Of a DNA stretch of 6,422 nt, positions 1 to 6,177 are shown piece after piece (position 1 is the first letter of the stretch; each line of letters begins with the position of its first letter). The translations under genes were made by a program, and so were the position numbers. Location: positions 1 to 6,422 of the forward strand of contig JAPYVG010000084.1 of assembly GCA_028277025.1 (NCBI GenBank), read 5' to 3'. Below the pieces are notes generated by a model. That model saw nothing but the letters and a program-made list of their open reading frames with translations, did not search any database and was not told the origin of the DNA. Origin of the DNA: Sulfolobaceae archaeon. GTDB lineage: Archaea > Thermoproteota > Thermoprotei_A > Sulfolobales > Sulfolobaceae.

Positions 1-1451
1 AAATAGAGAATGCTGAGGTTGAACTAGAGGGTATTGAAACTGAAGATCGATTATGCAGTGTGTGCAAATTAAGGAAAAGTGTTAGGGAAGATCTAATTCC
101 GACTATAATTACTAGAAAAACTGAAGATCGATTATGCAACATTTGCCTTTCAGTTAGACTTGCACCTTATGCTGTAGGGAGGACTTCCACTCTAAAGAGA
201 GGCGATAGAGGAGACACAGATGTAGAGAAAGAGGGTTGGTACAATTTATTTAAAAAAATAGATAATAGAGGAAGAAGTATAGATGAGTTAGTTGAAGGGT
301 ATGATGATAATGTGATATTTCTAGGTATAAAATTAGACTTAAAGAAATGGGATAATAGAGATGTTTCATTGATAGAGGCTTACCATTTAAACTTAGAGAA
401 CTTAAGGAATTCAGTTAAGGAGTTTTTGAAAGATGTAAGAGATAGAATTTTATCTGGTACTGATCCTAATGTGGATTTTGTAGTAAATAATTGTGTACAA
501 TTAAAAGATCCTAATCCAGAAAAGTTTGAAAAACTTACAAGTTCTTTTATAGATTTACTTGCAAGTCAAAGCAAAAGAATAGATATAAATGAATTTGCAA
601 ATAAAATTTTAGATCTCTGTGATAATATATTTTCCAGTAAGGAATTAGAACGGCTGCGCAATAATATAAAAAACTTGTTAAAAAACCATATAGATTATTT
701 TAATGAAAAAGTAGAACAACTTAAAAATAAATATAGATGTGATTTAAACACAATTGAAGTAGAGAATATAATAAGGAATTTAATAGATTCATATAGGAAG
801 ATAGAAATATCTAAATCATTAGACAGATTGTTTTCTATTAAACAGAACTTCTCTGTGATTATTGAGTATTTTATGGCCTTACTGTATATTAAAAAAGTTG
901 GTCACATAACTTTAATAGAACCTTCAATTACTACACCATTTTTCCTAGCAGTAATTCGTAAGAAGGATTTTAAGAAATTATTTAATGAAGTATTATATCC
1001 GTTTTTCCGAGAATTTTTAGAAGGTTCTAGATACAGTATATCGAACTTGATGCTAGTTTACATTATAAAAGCCAAATCATACACTCCAATTAAAATTATT
1101 AAGGAAATTATAAATACTGAACCCAAACCTCTAAAGGACTCTACAGTACTTCTAATCCCAGTAATAGTTAATAGGAACAGTTTACCCGTTACAGAGTTAA
1201 TAGGCGTCGATATTTACAGCTTTAAGAAATTCATGGATCTGGTAGAAAAAGAAATCCTCGATGAGGAGGCCTTAATAAGGCTATTAAGGTCTTCCGCAGA
1301 GGATTTACCTTATCCAGCTTTTGAAGACTGTAATAAGTTACCAGAAATATGTAGTGATATAATGAGTAAATGGGTAAGGGGAAAAGTCTTTTCCATTCGT
1401 CATGATAACGAATTGAAATTGAAGGGATATATAGCGAGGTTGTTGACATGA
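1..1451 (+). CDS. cas10: Cas10-like large subunit of a type III CRISPR complex, C-terminal part, polymerase motif lost
   Basis: Partial at the 5' end: the frame is open from base 3 with no stop, so the true start and any N-terminal HD nuclease domain lie outside; the GTG at 60 is internal. About 483 residues are visible. A four-cysteine zinc knuckle comes first (Cys codons at 54, 63, 135 and 144), as between the two Palm domains of Cas10. A Palm2-like pattern follows: a hydrophobic strand ending in Asp (312-338, NVIFLGIKLD), helices, then a strand pair (about 897-960) where Cas10 carries GGDD, and an SxSNLMLVYIIKAKSYTPIK segment resembling the later Palm strand and helix. Codons 924-935 read SITT in place of GGDD, so cyclic oligoadenylate synthesis is probably absent. 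The rest is a helical D4-like tail. Its stop overlaps the next start as ATGA. Base composition is very AT-rich. Cas10 assignment is by pattern and context; subtype (Csm1- or Cmr2-like) is open. Confidence 0.78.
   Translation, partial: IENAEVELEGIETEDRLCSVCKLRKSVREDLIPTIITRKTEDRLCNICLSVRLAPYAVGRTSTLKRGDRGDTDVEKEGWYNLFKKIDNRGRSIDELVEGYDDNVIFLGIKLDLKKWDNRDVSLIEAYHLNLENLRNSVKEFLKDVRDRILSGTDPNVDFVVNNCVQLKDPNPEKFEKLTSSFIDLLASQSKRIDINEFANKILDLCDNIFSSKELERLRNNIKNLLKNHIDYFNEKVEQLKNKYRCDLNTIEVENIIRNLIDSYRKIEISKSLDRLFSIKQNFSVIIEYFMALLYIKKVGHITLIEPSITTPFFLAVIRKKDFKKLFNEVLYPFFREFLEGSRYSISNLMLVYIIKAKSYTPIKIIKEIINTEPKPLKDSTVLLIPVIVNRNSLPVTELIGVDIYSFKKFMDLVEKEILDEEALIRLLRSSAEDLPYPAFEDCNKLPEICSDIMSKWVRGKVFSIRHDNELKLKGYIARLLT
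37..138 (+). repeat. Exact 21-bp direct repeat encoding both halves of the Cas10 zinc knuckle
   Basis: Positions 37-57 and 118-138 are identical over 21 bases and lie 81 bases (27 codons) apart in the same frame. Each copy encodes TEDRLC, and a second Cys follows two residues later (LCSVC and LCNIC). The repeat therefore places the two CxxC pairs of the zinc knuckle. It suggests that one half was copied from the other or homogenised by gene conversion. Confidence 0.85.
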
Positions 1452-2158
1452 GAGTATTTAAGATAACATTAAGGGCTTATAACGGCTTTTATAAAGAAAT
1501 TTTACCCTCTACAACAATAGCGGGCGGAATTACTTACGCTGCTTATCTCAATAAAGATATACTTCAAACAACAATTGGTTTTACAGATTTTCATAAAAAC
1601 AATAATATTTACAAATTACATGTTTCTAGAATTAAGCTTGATAGAATTAGTAATAAAGCAGAACCCTTCTACCTTTATAAATATGTGGATAAGGGGGAAT
1701 ATTACTTGACGTATATAGGCTATGCAATTGCTAATGAAGAAAATGAAGTCAAGAACCTCATTAATAAGTATGGCGCATATATTGGTAATTGGAACACAAT
1801 ATTTAGTTTAGACAGTATTTCGGAAGTCAGCAATATCAGTGATAAATGTGTCTATAATTTACCCGTTATAGACCTTTCTGATTTAATATCTAAATATAAA
1901 AATATGAGGGTACAAGTTCACAGATTCACAAATTCCAACTATCTCAGTATGTCTCCTTATAAAATATATTATGATACTAGGGAGAAAAAGTTCTTAAAAG
2001 TTACAAATAAAAAATACGTTTATTTAGCTACTTTTAAAATCGATAATGCGGATATAGGGTATTATTACGACGAATCTGAATTAGCTAACTTAAATCCTTT
2101 CGAGAGAATTTATGTAAAAATGGGATTCGGGGTTATAGGCCCATGTATTCAGATTTAG
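1448..2158 (+). CDS. Cas5-group (Csm4-like) RAMP protein
   Basis: Probably the Cas5 subunit that caps the crRNA 5' handle and bridges Cas10 to the Cas7 backbone; this role is inferred from family and position. At 236 residues it is somewhat short for Csm4 (often about 300). The N-terminus has the RAMP strand (FKITLRA, residues 4-10) followed by LPSTTIAGGITYAAY (19-33), matching the family pattern PSSTLxGAI near the first helix. The C-terminus ends in a glycine-rich loop, GFGVIGPC (226-233), as in Csm4 and Csx10. The middle is not recognisable to me. The ATG at 1448 overlaps the cas10 stop as ATGA, and a GAGG lies about ten bases upstream, so translation is probably coupled to cas10. The gene is AT-rich like cas10. 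A Csx10- or Cmr3-like identity is an alternative. Confidence 0.66.
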   Translation: MRVFKITLRAYNGFYKEILPSTTIAGGITYAAYLNKDILQTTIGFTDFHKNNNIYKLHVSRIKLDRISNKAEPFYLYKYVDKGEYYLTYIGYAIANEENEVKNLINKYGAYIGNWNTIFSLDSISEVSNISDKCVYNLPVIDLSDLISKYKNMRVQVHRFTNSNYLSMSPYKIYYDTREKKFLKVTNKKYVYLATFKIDNADIGYYYDESELANLNPFERIYVKMGFGVIGPCIQI

Positions 2159-2490
2159 TAAAATATGCTATCAGTTTTAATCCTAAGCAATATAAAAAGA
2201 AGTACTATACTTTACCTACTAAAATAGAGGAGAACACTCTCGTTAGATACATTTGGCATCTTAAGACCTTAGTAAGGTGTTTATTATCAAATTCAAAAGA
2301 AAAATACATTTTAGGTAGCGGTAAGATAAAGCTACCATATATATCTAGAATATTATTCAGTATTGACGATAATAAATTAGTTGTTTTATGTCTAGTAGAG
2401 GATAGCATATGCGACTTAGTATTCCGTACTGTCGAAATGGCACTTACAATAGATGAAAAAACCAAAGAGGAAATAATTAAGGGTTGCTAG
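2143..2490 (+). CDS. Unrecognised 115-residue protein of the cas10 operon, possible small subunit
   Basis: I do not recognise this protein. The ATG overlaps the end of the Cas5-like gene by 16 bases, which supports a real, translationally coupled gene; no clear SD site is visible. The N-terminal half looks helical and basic (residues 1-53, many Lys and Tyr, with VRYIWHLKTLVRCLL). The second half looks like strand, strand, helix (YISRILFSI, KLVVLCLVEDSICDLVFRTVEMAL). Small size and a place next to Cas10 and Cas5 would fit a Cas11-type small subunit, but those are normally all-helical, so this is a weak guess. Its stop TAG is the second half of a CTAG whose complement is the stop of the facing gene. 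Confidence 0.6.
   Translation: MYSDLVKYAISFNPKQYKKKYYTLPTKIEENTLVRYIWHLKTLVRCLLSNSKEKYILGSGKIKLPYISRILFSIDDNKLVVLCLVEDSICDLVFRTVEMALTIDEKTKEEIIKGC
2455..2468 (-). terminator. Possible T-tract terminator of the minus-strand cas operon
   Basis: Read on the minus strand, the sequence about 26-31 bases after the stop of the last minus-strand gene is CTTTGGTTTTTTC, with six T in a row at 2461-2456. Archaeal transcription often ends at T-runs without a hairpin. The site lies inside the facing 115-residue gene, so the two transcripts would overlap. No comparable tract was picked out for the plus-strand operon; the first T-rich stretch is near 2566-2578. Confidence 0.3.
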
Positions 2491-3182
2491 GTAATAACCT
2501 TATACTCAGCCCTCAGTATACCAAGTCCTCTAGATTTAAACCTACCTAATCTCACTATTCCATCATTTATTTGTCTTAACGCCTCAATTATTACGTTTTT
2601 ACACTCCTCATCTTCACAGAGTACATCAAATTCTATTTCATCTTTACTTACCTCAATGTTTAAACCTTTACTTTTCTCCTTAATATCATAAGTAAATTTT
2701 AGACCGCTTATAAACTGCGTATTAACCTTTTTATGACTCATAACTATCCTCATTTTAGCTCTAATATTTTCATTGCCAAAAACCCTACATATTATGCAAG
2801 GTTTAGAGAACTTCTCAATAACATCTCCTAAAATATTAGCATACACTTTACTCTCACAATCCTCACTTTCCCTTAATCTTTGAAGTTCAGCACAAGTAAA
2901 TGAGCTCTTTGCCTTCTTTTCGCTATTTTTACACTTCTCTAACTCACTTTCTACTCTGTCTAAGTTTGAAAGAAGTATCTTAGCAGTTACAGTCTCACAA
3001 GCACCCTCGAAATATGCATAGCATGCGGCAGTTCTCAAGAGGCCTTTAATAGTAGTAGGAGGAATAAACTTAAATGATGGATCACTACCAAAGTAAAACA
3101 TTACTTTTCTTTCTCCCGTTTTCAAGCTAGCAGAAATGTTATACGGCGTTAAAGGAACTAATTTAACGTGGATTCTAATCAA
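2487..3182 (-). CDS. Cas7-group RAMP protein, cysteine-rich, second backbone or capping subunit
   Basis: 231 residues. Cas7 hallmarks in order: N-terminal strand IRIHVKLVPLTPYNI (2-16); IPPTTIKGLLRTA (40-52), equivalent to the family IPGSSLKGxLR; CIICRVFG (129-136), equivalent to CxxCxLFG; and a C-terminal glycine loop LGRFKSRGLGIL (212-223). These support a crRNA-binding subunit of the type III backbone, perhaps at the Csm5/Cmr6-like end position given its short, divergent form. Asp34 sits in the loop where Csm3 has its target-cleaving Asp, but alignment there is unsure. Nine Cys, including 54, 62, 84, 97, 109, 129 and 132, suggest an enlarged zinc-binding region. The start is TTG, overlapping the protease stop as TTGA, with GTGAAGG five to six bases upstream. 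It is AT-richer than the other Cas7 gene. Confidence 0.72.
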   Translation of the reverse strand: MIRIHVKLVPLTPYNISASLKTGERKVMFYFGSDPSFKFIPPTTIKGLLRTAACYAYFEGACETVTAKILLSNLDRVESELEKCKNSEKKAKSSFTCAELQRLRESEDCESKVYANILGDVIEKFSKPCIICRVFGNENIRAKMRIVMSHKKVNTQFISGLKFTYDIKEKSKGLNIEVSKDEIEFDVLCEDEECKNVIIEALRQINDGIVRLGRFKSRGLGILRAEYKVIT

Positions 3183-3496
3183 GGATCCTTCACTTGTAAA
3201 TTCTTATAATCTAAAACTATTTGTAATCTCTCTAATAACTTTTCCCCGATCAGATTTTTATCTATATAGATATTACTAATACACGTAGTATAAATTTCTC
3301 TATTAAGAAACTTCACCATTACTATTTTCATTTTAGTAGAATATTCACGGCCGTCCGGAAGTCTCACTAGCGGACCTTCAAATTCCTCACCAGACAATGT
3401 TCTAAATACGTCATGGCTCAGTATGCACTCACCATCAAACCCGGAATCTATTTTAAACTCAATAATTCTACCATTAGCCTCCAAACTGAGCTTCAT
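3179..3496 (-). CDS. Retropepsin-like (clan AA) aspartic protease encoded between two cas7 genes
   Basis: 105 residues from the ATG at 3496, whose ATGA overlap with the upstream Cas7 stop favours it over the GTG at 3508. The protein is a single clan AA half-domain: a beta hairpin (KLSLEANGRIIEFKI), the catalytic triad Asp17-Ser18-Gly19 in FKIDSGFDGECIL, a flap-like PDGREY segment, and a distal hydrophobic-hydrophobic-Gly motif in NLIGEKLLERLQIVLDY (Gly84). This order matches short prokaryotic retropepsins, which work as homodimers with one Asp from each chain. No signal peptide or membrane segment is visible, so it should be cytoplasmic. Both ends overlap RAMP genes by 4 bases, so it belongs to the CRISPR operon. 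The substrate cannot be read from sequence; a neighbouring subunit or a host protein released on target recognition are guesses. Confidence 0.72.
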   Translation of the reverse strand: MKLSLEANGRIIEFKIDSGFDGECILSHDVFRTLSGEEFEGPLVRLPDGREYSTKMKIVMVKFLNREIYTTCISNIYIDKNLIGEKLLERLQIVLDYKNLQVKDP

Positions 3497-4623
3497 GATA
3501 AAGACCACACTCCCTTAACCCTTACCTCATATTTCTCTCCCCTTACTTTATCCAAAATACTCTTCAACTCCTCTCCATTTCTAGCCTCATAAATCTTACC
3601 ACCCTCAGTAATTACAGTAAATACAACTTCCCCTTCACTAACGGGGTTAAGAGCGTTTATTAACGTGTTAGGAAAGAGCTTACATAGAATCCTTTTATCA
3701 CAACCCACCTCCTTAGGCTCAGTTATACTTAACGCAAATTTCCCCTTAAGTAATACAGAACTAAATTCGACCACCTCACCCGGTATGTATAATCTGAAGC
3801 TACCGTATCCAGAAGTCCCCCTACCGCCTATCCACACCTCCCCTTCATCAGCTTTCTCCTTCAATATCTTTAACATCTCAACAACCTTGTCAGTTAAGGG
3901 GTCGTTAAGCACTGCTAGAAATCCTAAGAATTTAACACCGGCCGGAATTACTTCTTCAGTGAAGAGCTTACCTTTCTCCACTGTCATGGTAACCCTATTT
4001 ATAGCCACATGGGTAGTCCTCTCCAAGAGCACCGGAAAAGGATCTACAGCTACTAGATCTGTAAACTTCACAAACCCCCTAACACCAGAAGTTCCTAAAA
4101 CTCTACACACCTCACATAAGTTCTTCCTCCCAGTAAGTTTAATCCATGCCTCCTTGAGTTTACGTCTCTTCTCGTCCTCAATTAACGCCAAGTTCTCGCA
4201 CCTATCTAAGTCCGAGGTAACGTAACAAGCTTTATCTATACCATAACCAGTTATCTCTAAATACTGCTTGAAAGCTTCTTCCAGAGTTTCTCCCACTTTA
4301 TCAATAAGCCCAGCGTAAATGTAGTTACTTAACTCCTCCTTAAGACTCTCAAAAACTATCTTCTTCTCTTCCTCACTTAAAACCCCAACGTTTTCCAAAA
4401 CTTTCGTATCAACCCTCCCTTTCCTTAAATACCTTTCGTAAGTAGAACGGAGTAGGCCCTTAAAACTAGTAGCCGATATTGCTGGTATGTAATAGTTTTC
4501 GTCGTTTACTTGAAGTGGAATTTTGTAAGTAACTAAGTCTGCAGCTGAATAGTCAAAGTAAACGCCGGTAGCCCCAACCCTAGTCAATGAGAGCGTTTCT
4601 AAGACCACGGGGAGTACTTTCAA
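3493..4623 (-). CDS. Cas7-group RAMP protein, Csm3-like backbone subunit
   Basis: 376 residues, longer than typical Csm3 (about 220-300), with an extra domain after residue 280. Hallmarks in order: N-terminal strand (LPVVLETLSL, 4-13); a loop with Asp24 and Asp29 (DYSAADLVTYKIP) where Csm3 has the Asp that cuts target RNA; YYIPAISATSFKGLLRSTY (44-62); Cys133, Cys142, Cys170 and Cys173 as a likely zinc site with CEVCRVLG (170-177); FTD (187-189); HVAINR (205-210) followed by LFTEEVIPAGVKF; and the glycine loop GGRGTSGYG (266-274). These are close matches to the Csm3/Cmr4 pattern, so crRNA binding is likely and backbone target RNA cleavage possible. The start is TTG, overlapping the upstream stop as TTGA, with GAGGAG directly before it and GGTG further up. 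GC content is clearly higher than in cas10. Only one such protein is visible; other Cas7 genes could lie outside the window. Confidence 0.85.
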   Translation of the reverse strand: MKVLPVVLETLSLTRVGATGVYFDYSAADLVTYKIPLQVNDENYYIPAISATSFKGLLRSTYERYLRKGRVDTKVLENVGVLSEEEKKIVFESLKEELSNYIYAGLIDKVGETLEEAFKQYLEITGYGIDKACYVTSDLDRCENLALIEDEKRRKLKEAWIKLTGRKNLCEVCRVLGTSGVRGFVKFTDLVAVDPFPVLLERTTHVAINRVTMTVEKGKLFTEEVIPAGVKFLGFLAVLNDPLTDKVVEMLKILKEKADEGEVWIGGRGTSGYGSFRLYIPGEVVEFSSVLLKGKFALSITEPKEVGCDKRILCKLFPNTLINALNPVSEGEVVFTVITEGGKIYEARNGEELKSILDKVRGEKYEVRVKGVWSLS

Positions 4624-4835
4624 CTCCTCAACACCTTTATTAGCTCTTCTTTAGCCTTACTGACATCCCTATTATAAAGTGCCTTTATAACGTTTTCAAC
4701 GTGCAACCCCTTAAACGATCTGAGCGTAAGGATCAGGTTATCAACAATTTTTTGGTCGTCAATTCCAGATATTATATACTGTTGCATAACGTTGATCAGT
4801 ATCTTAGCCCTTTCTATCTCGTCCTCTCTTTCCAT
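4620..4835 (-). CDS. 71-residue helical protein, first gene of the minus-strand cas operon
   Basis: I do not recognise it by name. The composition suggests three or four amphipathic helices (EREDEIERAKILINVMQQYII, DDQKIVDNLILTLRSF, HVENVIKALY, VSKAKEELIKVLRS) with many charged residues, no Cys and no membrane segment. Its stop TGA overlaps the TTG start of the Csm3-like gene, so it is co-translated with the backbone. Small, all-helical and next to Cas7 fits a reduced Cas11 (Csm2/Cmr5-like) small subunit, although those are usually 110-150 residues; a regulator of the operon is the alternative. The ATG at 4835 is preceded by GGGGAG about eleven bases upstream, a good SD site. An upstream ATG at 4854 is out of frame and is not the start. 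Confidence 0.68.
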   Translation of the reverse strand: MEREDEIERAKILINVMQQYIISGIDDQKIVDNLILTLRSFKGLHVENVIKALYNRDVSKAKEELIKVLRS

Positions 4836-4892
4836 AAGATATTTTTCTCCCCATGATTAATAACTTTTAATGCATGAGGAATTAATAGAGTA
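4836..4892 (-). promoter_or_regulatory. Presumed promoter and SD region of the minus-strand cas operon
   Basis: On the minus strand, GGGGAG lies at 4852-4847, ahead of the ATG at 4835. AT-rich TATA-like stretches are CTATTAATT (about 4890-4882) and ATTAAAAGTTATTAAT (about 4872-4857). The first would start a short leader that includes the SD site. It falls inside the coding start of the divergent 68-residue gene. Which stretch is used cannot be decided from sequence. Confidence 0.35.
4838..4847 (+). promoter_or_regulatory. TATA-like box for a leaderless transcript of the 68-residue gene
   Basis: GATATTTTTC is centred about 27 bases before the ATG at 4870, the usual TATA-to-start distance in Sulfolobales. 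No SD site precedes that ATG, which fits a leaderless message. The box lies within the 34-bp gap between two divergent genes, over the translation start region of the minus-strand cas operon. Confidence 0.4.
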
Positions 4893-5076
4893 TTACGAGG
4901 CGTTGAAGCTCTGTGAGGATTGTGAGGAAATAATAACTAAGTTAAGGGAGCATCTAGCGTTAATTAACAAAGATAGTATAGTATCTAAGAAGGTGAGCAT
5001 TATCAACAATAGCAATAACGTTAACGTAATAAGGGAAACTCTCTTCCAGCTAATATTTTACTTATATGGAAAATGA
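4870..5076 (+). CDS. 68-residue acidic helical protein with CxxC motif, function unknown
   Basis: Not recognised. It is mostly helical by composition: an acidic N-terminal helix with Cys15-x-x-Cys18 (LCEDCEE), a second helix (IITKLREHLALI), an Asn/Ser-rich linker (residues 46-54) and a hydrophobic C-terminal helix (ETLFQLIFYLYG). The ATG at 4870 has no SD site but a TATA-like box at leaderless spacing. Divergent transcription from a 34-bp gap shared with the cas operon suggests a linked role, for example regulator or accessory factor, but nothing in the protein proves it. The hydrophobic end is too short to call a membrane anchor confidently. It could also be a gene of the flanking region. 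Confidence 0.55.
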   Translation: MHEELIEYYEALKLCEDCEEIITKLREHLALINKDSIVSKKVSIINNSNNVNVIRETLFQLIFYLYGK

Positions 5077-5318
5077 TGTTTAGGCGTGAATGATTTCCTA
5101 ACGAATCGCTGTAATCTCTTGTTTTCCCAAGAATTTCCCTCTTAATTCCCACCTTATCCTACACTCCATTATTTTCATCACAATATTTGATTGATATTTC
5201 CATTTAAGTAATAAAACTCTTTAGTTGATAGAAAACCCAAAATAGTTCTTATTTCATTTCATGTTCCCTCCCATGTGTAGTAAAATTTGATAGTTTAGTA
5301 CTTATCAGGAAATTAGAG
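5077..5318. other. Intergenic stretch without a convincing gene
   Basis: No long reading frame on either strand. Immediately after the 68-residue gene there is a weak stem (TTAGG at 5080-5084 with CCTAA at 5097-5101) and then T-rich tracts around 5117-5126 that could end its transcript. On the minus strand a 27-codon frame (5181-5098) contains IRWELRGKFLGKQE, which has protein-like composition and could be a remnant of a lost gene, but it is too short to call. No tRNA, CRISPR repeat or clear box C/D RNA was found. Confidence 0.5.
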
Positions 5319-5463
5319 AGGGTGGAGATAGTGTCGTCATTAGGGTATAAATTTATTAAACGTTGATTCTATATATAAAGAATTAACAATAAATTCGAAT
5401 ATTATATAAAGTCTAAAAATTGTAGAAATATAAATAAGCAAGTGACGACACTATCACCACACT
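5319..5463. repeat. 145-bp structure bounded by 21-bp inverted repeats
   Basis: The left arm (5319-5339) and right arm (5443-5463) are inverted copies matching at 19 of 21 positions, with a perfect 13-base core, GATAGTGTCGTCA (5327-5339) against its complement at 5443-5455. The 103-bp centre is extremely AT-rich and contains TATATAAAG twice (5372-5380 and 5403-5411). A second, 10-base inverted pair, ATAAATAAGC (5430-5439) and its complement at 5482-5491, encloses the right arm. The layout fits a small non-autonomous transposable element (MITE-like), or a paired protein-binding site upstream of the 5527 gene. No target-site duplication is visible at the outer edges, which weakens the transposon reading. 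Confidence 0.7.
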
Positions 5464-5488
5464 GGCACCGATGATAGCAAAGCTTATT

Positions 5489-5513
5489 TATGTCTTCCAT
5501 AAAAGAAGATATA
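5489..5513 (+). promoter_or_regulatory. Palindrome around a TATA-like box ahead of the helix-turn-helix gene
   Basis: Arms TATGTCTTC (5489-5497) and GAAGATATA (5505-5513) are inverted copies with one mismatch, separated by CATAAAA. The ATAAAAG in and beside the loop is centred about 25 bases before the ATG at 5527, suitable for a leaderless transcript. A dimeric repressor bound here would cover the TATA box. The gene downstream encodes a likely DNA-binding protein, so self-repression is a reasonable but untested idea. Confidence 0.45.
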
Positions 5514-5526
5514 GTAGTGACGCGAT

Positions 5527-6177
5527 ATGTTAAATAACGCACGTAATTACGAAAACGTCTTAGTATATGCACAATACCTTTCCGGAGGGCTTATGAAGGA
5601 GTTAGTTCACCGTATTGCTGAAAAAGAAGGTAAGAGCTTAAGGGAAGTAATGAAGGAAATGGGTATGAGTACTGGGACTATTTACAAACCACTAGGTGAA
5701 GATGCTAAGAGGAAAATATTGGAAAAGGCGTTTGAGGTGCTAGACCCTGAGGAAGTCCTACTCGAAATATTTTACGATATTAGAGCAATTTATGGTAGGG
5801 TTATTAGGGATATACTTGAGATTGCAAAAGATGAGACTAAAGAAGAGATTTTGAAAAATTACAACGATATAGGCATTGAGAAAATTGAACAATATCTGAC
5901 CATAGAGGAGCTCAAGTATGCCTCCGATATAAAACCATTCGTCAATGCTAATACAATTCTGTCCAATATATTAAGCTATCTGTTAAGTACTAAAGGCATA
6001 GAGAAAATACACAATATCGAACAACATCGGAGTATAGTAGAGGAGCTCAAGCATGCCTCCTATATAAAATCATCCTTCAATATCTATACAAATCTGTCCA
6101 ACATATTAAGCCGGCCGTCAAGTACTGAAGAACAGGCTCTTAAGCCTAAATCAATAATAGCTTATAGAGGGAGGTAA
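5527..6177 (+). CDS. Helix-turn-helix protein of 216 residues with duplicated C-terminal segment
   Basis: Residues 22-75 look like a DNA-binding domain: KELVHRIAEKEGKSLREVMKEMGMSTGTIYKPLGEDAKRKILEKAFEVL, with the turn at about 38-56 (SLREVMKEMGMSTGTIYK). The pattern, followed by LDPEEVLLEIF, recalls the N-terminal domains of some archaeal plasmid- or virus-type recombinases, but no recombinase catalytic domain follows, so this may be a stand-alone regulator or a truncated relative. Residues 76-110 are helical. Residues 116-156 and 157-201 are a tandem duplication. The start is firm: an in-frame stop lies at 5518-5520, and a TATA-like box sits about 25 bases before the ATG, with no SD site. 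The stop at 6175-6177 is followed after six bases by the next gene, which has a strong SD site, so the two form an operon. Confidence 0.7.
   Translation: MLNNARNYENVLVYAQYLSGGLMKELVHRIAEKEGKSLREVMKEMGMSTGTIYKPLGEDAKRKILEKAFEVLDPEEVLLEIFYDIRAIYGRVIRDILEIAKDETKEEILKNYNDIGIEKIEQYLTIEELKYASDIKPFVNANTILSNILSYLLSTKGIEKIHNIEQHRSIVEELKHASYIKSSFNIYTNLSNILSRPSSTEEQALKPKSIIAYRGR
5872..6129 (+). repeat. Diverged tandem duplication within the helix-turn-helix gene
   Basis: Unit A (5872-5994) and unit B (5995-6129) both begin GGCAT(T/A)GAGAAAAT and encode GIEKI, EELK(Y/H)AS, IK and LSNILS in the same order. Unit B carries four extra codons. From 5905 and 6040 onward the units align without gaps and differ at about 16 of 87 bases by hand count. 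The copies therefore arose by in-frame duplication and then drifted. Confidence 0.85.
6167..6175 (+). promoter_or_regulatory. Strong SD site deciding a TTG start
   Basis: GAGGGAGGT, spanning the last codons and the stop of the helix-turn-helix gene, is the strongest anti-SD match noticed in the window. It lies eight bases before the TTG at 6184, which fixes that codon as the start of the next gene and implies coupled translation. Confidence 0.7.

What the first reader, a model, noticed from the sequence alone, without database searches (positions are those of the whole stretch)
3179..3496. Aspartic protease gene embedded between two type III cas7 genes
A compact retropepsin-like protein (DSG triad plus distal NLIG) is fused into a cas operon by 4-base overlaps at both ends, so it is made together with the crRNA-binding subunits. 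Known CRISPR-linked proteases are mainly caspase-like (with the III-E effector) or Lon-like and activated by cyclic nucleotides. With Cas10 apparently cyclase-dead, this one would more likely be controlled by direct contact with the complex, for example by target-induced dimerisation, since retropepsins need two chains to form the active site. This is the best candidate here for an undescribed immune output.
Basis: partly seen in the sequence, partly recalled or inferred. Interest (0 to 1): 0.88.

Follow-up and report, generated by a model that had tools for sequence, protein, structure and literature searches.

The report
Retropepsin-like protease in CRISPR operon
A small HIV-protease-like enzyme gene sits inside the operon of a rare archaeal CRISPR system that seems unable to make the usual chemical alarm signal, so it may give that system a protein-cutting output; the gene family was already catalogued next to such operons, but I found no description of what it does.

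The parts
3179..3496 (-). Retropepsin-like aspartic protease (PEPT_D / TIGR03698), 105 aa; DSG at residues 17-19, NLIG at 81-84
3493..4623 (-). cas7 (III-G, larger, 376 aa, TTG start); 4-base overlap ATGA with the protease gene
2487..3182 (-). second cas7 (231 aa, TTG start); 4-base overlap TTGA with the protease gene
4620..4835 (-). C3a64, 71 aa helical protein of unknown function, first gene of the minus-strand operon; 4-base overlap TTGA with cas7
   Evidence: PADLOC PDLC01058 2.6e-37; single-sequence model four helices, pLDDT 81.4
2143..2490 (+). csx26, III-G signature gene, converging on the second cas7
   Evidence: NF049948 112.8 bits, cut-off 50
1448..2158 (+). cas5 of III-G
   Evidence: PADLOC Csm4 5.7e-94, Cas5_IIIg 8.9e-71
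3..1451 (+). cas10 (Cas10g) C-terminal part, cut off by the window start; two CxxC motifs, no GGDD
   Evidence: PADLOC Cas10 7.8e-78, Cas10g 1.4e-74 at profile positions 313-710 of 711

Best explanation
A subtype III-G CRISPR effector operon encodes a single-domain retropepsin-like aspartic protease with intact catalytic residues, translated in step with its Cas7 subunits. Shown: family, predicted fold, active-site residues, operon position. Inferred: two chains must pair through C-terminal strands to form the active site. This weak dimerisation is favoured when the protease is held on or near the III-G complex, most likely after the complex engages target. It then cuts one or a few specific proteins (candidates in view: the co-encoded helical protein C3a64, a Cas subunit, or a host or virus protein), giving a proteolytic output without cyclic oligoadenylate.
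For: Family and fold. Asp17, Gly19 and NLIG invariant and residue 18 Ser or Thr in 4 of 4 sequences. Four-base overlaps with both cas7 genes and between C3a64 and cas7. PADLOC's description records the same association in Sulfolobales. Of 14 control genomes, PEPT_D, Csx26, Cas10g and C3a64 each ring in one, the same one, S. acidocaldarius. Metallosphaera hakonensis has both a PEPT_D protein (P0003) and a Cas7_IIIg protein (P0011), linked by species name. No GGDD in the Cas10 part seen; III-G reported to have lost cyclic-oligoadenylate signalling (PMC12669027). Structural alignments to XMRV, Ddi1 and Rickettsia proteases run from residue 1 to 105, so no sensor domain fits. Model residue 1 aligns with HIV protease residue 9, so the N-terminal interface strand is missing. 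C-terminal-only interfaces have fewer contacts, and lower dimer stability is reported for XMRV and suggested for Ddi (PMC7072860, passages). Between the window and P0002 the last 25 residues are 24/25 identical against 48/80 before them (Fisher p 0.0004). Precedent for a CRISPR protease switched on by target RNA binding to its Cas7-type partner: Csx29 (PMC10028731, abstract and opening paragraphs).
Against: No activity, binding, dimer or substrate was tested. The C-terminal conservation excess is absent against P0001 (24/25 v 77/80, p 1) and not significant against P0003 (12/25 v 28/80, p 0.25). The GTG start at 3508 would add four N-terminal residues that could lengthen the first strand. P0003 scores 53 bits, below the TIGR03698 cut-off of 57.35. 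Only 2 of 5 AlphaFold2 models had mean pLDDT above 80, and the C-terminal end is least certain. The main text of the 2025 classification names no aspartic protease, peptidase or retropepsin; its figures and supplements were not seen. No relative's gene neighbourhood could be read.
Confidence: 0.4

Rival explanations
1. It is a constitutive processing enzyme: it trims a co-encoded protein (a Cas7 tail, C3a64 or Cas10) during complex assembly, as retroviral proteases mature polyproteins, and is not gated by target.
For: Operon position beside possible substrates. The larger Cas7 carries about 100 residues after its Gly-rich RAMP motif in 8 of 13 aligned sequences, the window's included.
Against: That tail is 20-77 residues in the other 5 of 13, among them M. 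hakonensis P0011 (20), a species that has the protease. No cleavage site was identified.
Confidence: 0.25
2. The protein is a structural or docking subunit that keeps the retropepsin fold, with little or no proteolysis in its normal role.
For: Small and co-encoded with complex subunits.
Against: Catalytic Asp, Ser/Thr and Gly, and the hydrophobic-hydrophobic-Gly element, are kept in 4 of 4 sequences down to 38% identity.
Confidence: 0.15
3. It is a general cellular or anti-viral protease that travels in the operon and works apart from the III-G complex.
For: The wider TIGR03698 family rings in 3 of 14 controls (over the cut-off in 1), Caulobacter vibrioides and Methanosarcina acetivorans among them, so the family is not CRISPR-specific.
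Against: The narrower PEPT_D profile rings in 1 of 14 controls, the one that also has Csx26 and Cas10g. Overlaps at both ends tie its translation to cas7.
Confidence: 0.15

Closest known systems
PADLOC PEPT_D (PDLC01133), aspartyl protease in Sulfolobales type III operons
   Same: Full profile matched (positions 1-105 of 105) and the same kind of context; the window protein is a member
   Different: No difference found; the profile gives no function
NCBIfam TIGR03698 clan AA aspartic proteases; retropepsins, Ddi1, Rickettsia APRc
   Same: Family score over cut-off; fold; DSG and hydrophobic-hydrophobic-Gly motifs
   Different: Encoded inside a cas operon; single domain; no N-terminal interface strand as in HIV protease
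Craspase (Cas7-11 with Csx29, subtype III-E)
   Same: Protease encoded with Cas7-type proteins; would be gated without cyclic nucleotides
   Different: Csx29 is a TPR-CHAT cysteine protease; here an aspartic protease that needs two chains, in a multi-subunit III-G system; no substrate identified
CalpL and SAVED-CHAT proteases
   Same: CRISPR type III-linked proteases
   Different: Those carry a SAVED domain and are activated by cyclic oligoadenylates (PMC11229360, passages); no sensor domain here

Membership tests
PADLOC PEPT_D / NCBIfam TIGR03698 | Profile score | tested here: met
   149.6 bits over the whole PEPT_D profile; 84.6 bits against cut-off 57.35
Retropepsins (clan AA) | Retropepsin fold | tested here: met
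Retropepsins (clan AA) | D-S/T-G and hydrophobic-hydrophobic-Gly motifs kept in relatives | tested here: met
   4 of 4 aligned sequences
Retropepsins (clan AA) | Active homodimer that cleaves peptides | not testable with these tools
   Needs purified protein; only a monomer was modelled
CRISPR-Cas subtype III-G | Csx26 signature protein with III-G Cas7, Cas5 and Cas10 | tested here: met
   NF049948 112.8 bits, cut-off 50; Cas10g, Cas5_IIIg, Cas7_IIIg profiles
CRISPR-Cas subtype III-G | Inactivated Cas10 Palm/cyclase domain | tested here: inconclusive
   No GGDD in the 482 residues seen, but the N-terminal part lies outside the window
CRISPR-Cas subtype III-G | No CRISPR array or adaptation genes in the locus | tested here: inconclusive
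   The 7 direct-repeat families found have 2 copies each and no adaptation protein turned up among the 9 proteins scanned; the window is only 6.4 kb
CRISPR-Cas subtype III-G | Cas7 catalytic aspartate not conserved (as published) | tested here: inconclusive
   An Asp at residue 29 of the larger Cas7 is kept in 12 of 13 aligned sequences, the window's included; P0016 lacks the region and the fragment P0015 was left out. That this is the catalytic position is recalled from Csm3/Cmr4, not tested
Craspase Csx29 / CalpL | CHAT or Lon protease domain, or SAVED/CARF domain | tested here: not met
   No such match among the families listed for this protein in Pfam (none), NCBIfam (TIGR03698 only) and PADLOC (PEPT_D, protease, and a weak NYN match at 0.0055)

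The most novel reading that the evidence does not exclude
Subtype III-G, having lost cyclic-oligoadenylate signalling, uses an RNA-guided retropepsin: target binding by the complex pairs two protease chains and triggers cleavage of a dedicated protein, a messenger-free, dimerisation-gated immune output by a catalytic class not described among CRISPR effectors in the papers I saw.
Probability: 0.27. Interest if true: 0.87.

Novelty: new member of a known kind. Interest (0 to 1): 0.52.

Why it matters
The CRISPR-linked proteases named in the papers seen are caspase-like (CHAT) or Lon-like. An aspartic protease that must dimerise, in a type III subtype reported to lack cyclic-nucleotide output and with no sensor domain of its own, would be a different way to turn RNA recognition into protein cleavage. 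I found no biochemistry of III-G: searches for Csx26 and for III-G with Sulfolobales and Cas10 gave three different papers, of which one calls the system uninvestigated in 2020, one is the 2025 classification and one is unrelated. S. acidocaldarius, in which gene deletions are made, rings for both Csx26 and this protease family, so the question is directly testable.

Tried and rejected
Neighbourhoods of relatives: the search for related loci found no relative of the protease in genome contigs (2 scans) or viral contigs, nor in viral contigs of Csx26, the larger Cas7, the Cas10 part or the 5527-6177 protein. These scans need exact peptide patterns, so a miss is weak evidence: the protein database does hold relatives on chromosome-sized contigs. 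No match was found for the protease protein in plasmids, the window DNA in plasmids and phages, the 5527-6177 protein in phages, or P0009 in plasmids. So conservation of gene order was not seen directly. P0002's longest contig length equals none of the 13 Cas7 hits', so its genome could not be linked to a Cas7; one search scored only the 7,995 candidates sharing most words.

Literature: 10 searches. 'type III CRISPR' with 'aspartic protease' and 'accessory', 'CRISPR' with 'retropepsin' and 'Cas10', and 'type III CRISPR' with 'aspartyl protease' gave no paper; 'Cas10' with 'aspartic protease' gave 2 papers with unrelated titles, not opened; the 20 of 123 papers listed hold 'aspartyl protease' 0 times. 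The survey that probably first listed this family (Shah and colleagues, RNA Biology; recalled) and the 2020 classification are not held, so an earlier published description is not excluded.

The 3-row protease alignment against PDB sequences gave 2 hits, E 0.27 and 0.78, taken as chance. C3a64: the single-sequence model has no PDB match at E<=0.001, so a Cas11-like role is neither shown nor excluded. C3a64 and the divergent 68-aa ORF gave no BLASTP alignment. The Cas10 part has no PDB relative by sequence (2 hits, best E 0.99). The Rfam match to PsrR1 (24 bits, gathering 42) is taken as chance. Promoter-like sites at 4600-5600 are at the chance level, 6 against 5.1. ARAGORN found no tRNA.

Full report
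Observation. The reported feature is real and lies on the minus strand. The ORF ending at 3179 reads 105 codons from the ATG at 3496; a GTG at 3508 would add four residues. The three relatives found are all 105 aa. The stop of the upstream cas7 and the ATG share ATGA at 3493-3496, and the protease stop and the TTG start of the next cas7 share TTGA at 3179-3182; C3a64 and the first cas7 share TTGA at 4620-4623. The minus-strand operon is therefore C3a64, cas7 (376 aa), protease, cas7 (231 aa), converging on a plus-strand operon of cas10 (cut by the window start), cas5 and csx26.

Identity. The protein passes NCBIfam TIGR03698, clan AA aspartic protease, at 84.6 bits against a cut-off of 57.35, and matches the whole PADLOC profile PEPT_D at 7.4e-45; that profile's own description is 'Aspartyl protease, in the type III operon in Sulfolobales'. 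Pfam-A gave nothing at E<=1. P0001 (96% identical), P0002 (69%, Sulfolobaceae) and P0003 (38%, Metallosphaera hakonensis) also match PEPT_D end to end, 3 of 3; P0003 is below the TIGR03698 cut-off (53 bits). Asp17, Gly19 and NLIG 81-84 are invariant, and residue 18 is Ser or Thr, in 4 of 4 sequences. Two cysteines, 24 and 72, are also invariant in 4 of 4.

System. Csx26 (112.8 bits, cut-off 50) and the Cas10g, Cas5_IIIg and Cas7_IIIg profiles place the locus in subtype III-G. The 2025 classification (PMC12669027; passages, part 1 of 2 of section 7) calls III-G Sulfolobales-specific, with inactivated Cas10 Palm domains, lost cyclic-oligoadenylate signalling, no adaptation modules, no CRISPR array so far found, and predicted DNA cleavage by an apparently active HD domain. 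Its main text uses 'protease' twice, for Caspase and Lon families and in a CHAT legend, and holds none of 'peptidase', 'pepsin', 'retroviral' or 'C3a64'; its figures and supplements were not seen. The Cas10 fragment in the window has two CxxC motifs and no GGDD; its N-terminal region lies outside the window.

Linkage elsewhere. In the 14 control genomes, Csx26, PEPT_D, Cas10g and C3a64 each ring in one, always S. acidocaldarius; the wider TIGR03698 rings in three, over its cut-off in one. Those answers give no positions. M. hakonensis has P0003 (PEPT_D) and P0011 (Cas7_IIIg), linked by species name only. No neighbourhood of a relative could be read.

Mechanism. The most likely reading is a proteolytic accessory of the III-G complex, made in step with Cas7 and active only as a dimer. 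With no sensor domain and, as published, no working cyclase in its own complex, control by proximity to or contact with the complex is more likely than control by a nucleotide. This resembles Craspase, where Csx29 is activated allosterically by target RNA binding to Cas7-11 and cuts an inhibitor of a sigma factor (PMC10028731, abstract and opening paragraphs), but with another protease class and no identified substrate. The rivals are constitutive processing of a Cas protein, a structural role, and a free-standing protease. None can be separated by sequence alone.

Verdict. The gene family and its type III link were catalogued before; I found no function in the papers searched. It is a new member of a known kind, with an open and testable mechanism.

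Noticed in passing
3493-4623 (-): The larger III-G Cas7 keeps an Asp (residue 29, in an AD motif) in 12 of 13 aligned sequences, the 13th lacking the region, at about the place of the RNA-cleaving Asp of Csm3/Cmr4 (recalled), although the 2025 classification says the Cas7 catalytic aspartates are not conserved in III-G. RNA cleavage may not be excluded.
   Followed up: partly
4620-4835 (-): C3a64, first gene of the operon, is a 71-aa helical protein of unknown function; its profile rings in S. acidocaldarius alone of 14 controls. It may be a complex subunit or the protease's partner or substrate.
   Followed up: partly
3182-3496 (-), residues 24 and 72: Two cysteines are invariant in 4 of 4 protease sequences; a disulfide or redox control is possible.
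   Followed up: no
5328-5339 and 5443-5454: A perfect 12-base inverted repeat (ATAGTGTCGTCA) inside 30-base, 80% complementary arms, upstream of the 5527 gene; perhaps an operator or a mobile-element end. With up to 3 mismatches the pattern is at chance level (6 matches; 46 of 200 shuffles reach 6); the two perfect copies were not tested apart.
   Followed up: partly
5527-6177 (+): A 216-aa protein with weak helix-turn-helix matches and a 93-base direct repeat (82% identical, spacing 135) in its 3' half; no relatives in the phage records or viral contigs searched.
   Followed up: partly
37-57 and 118-138: A perfect 21-base direct repeat next to the two CxxC motifs of Cas10 (TEDRLC twice), suggesting an internal duplication in the presumed zinc-binding region.
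   Followed up: no
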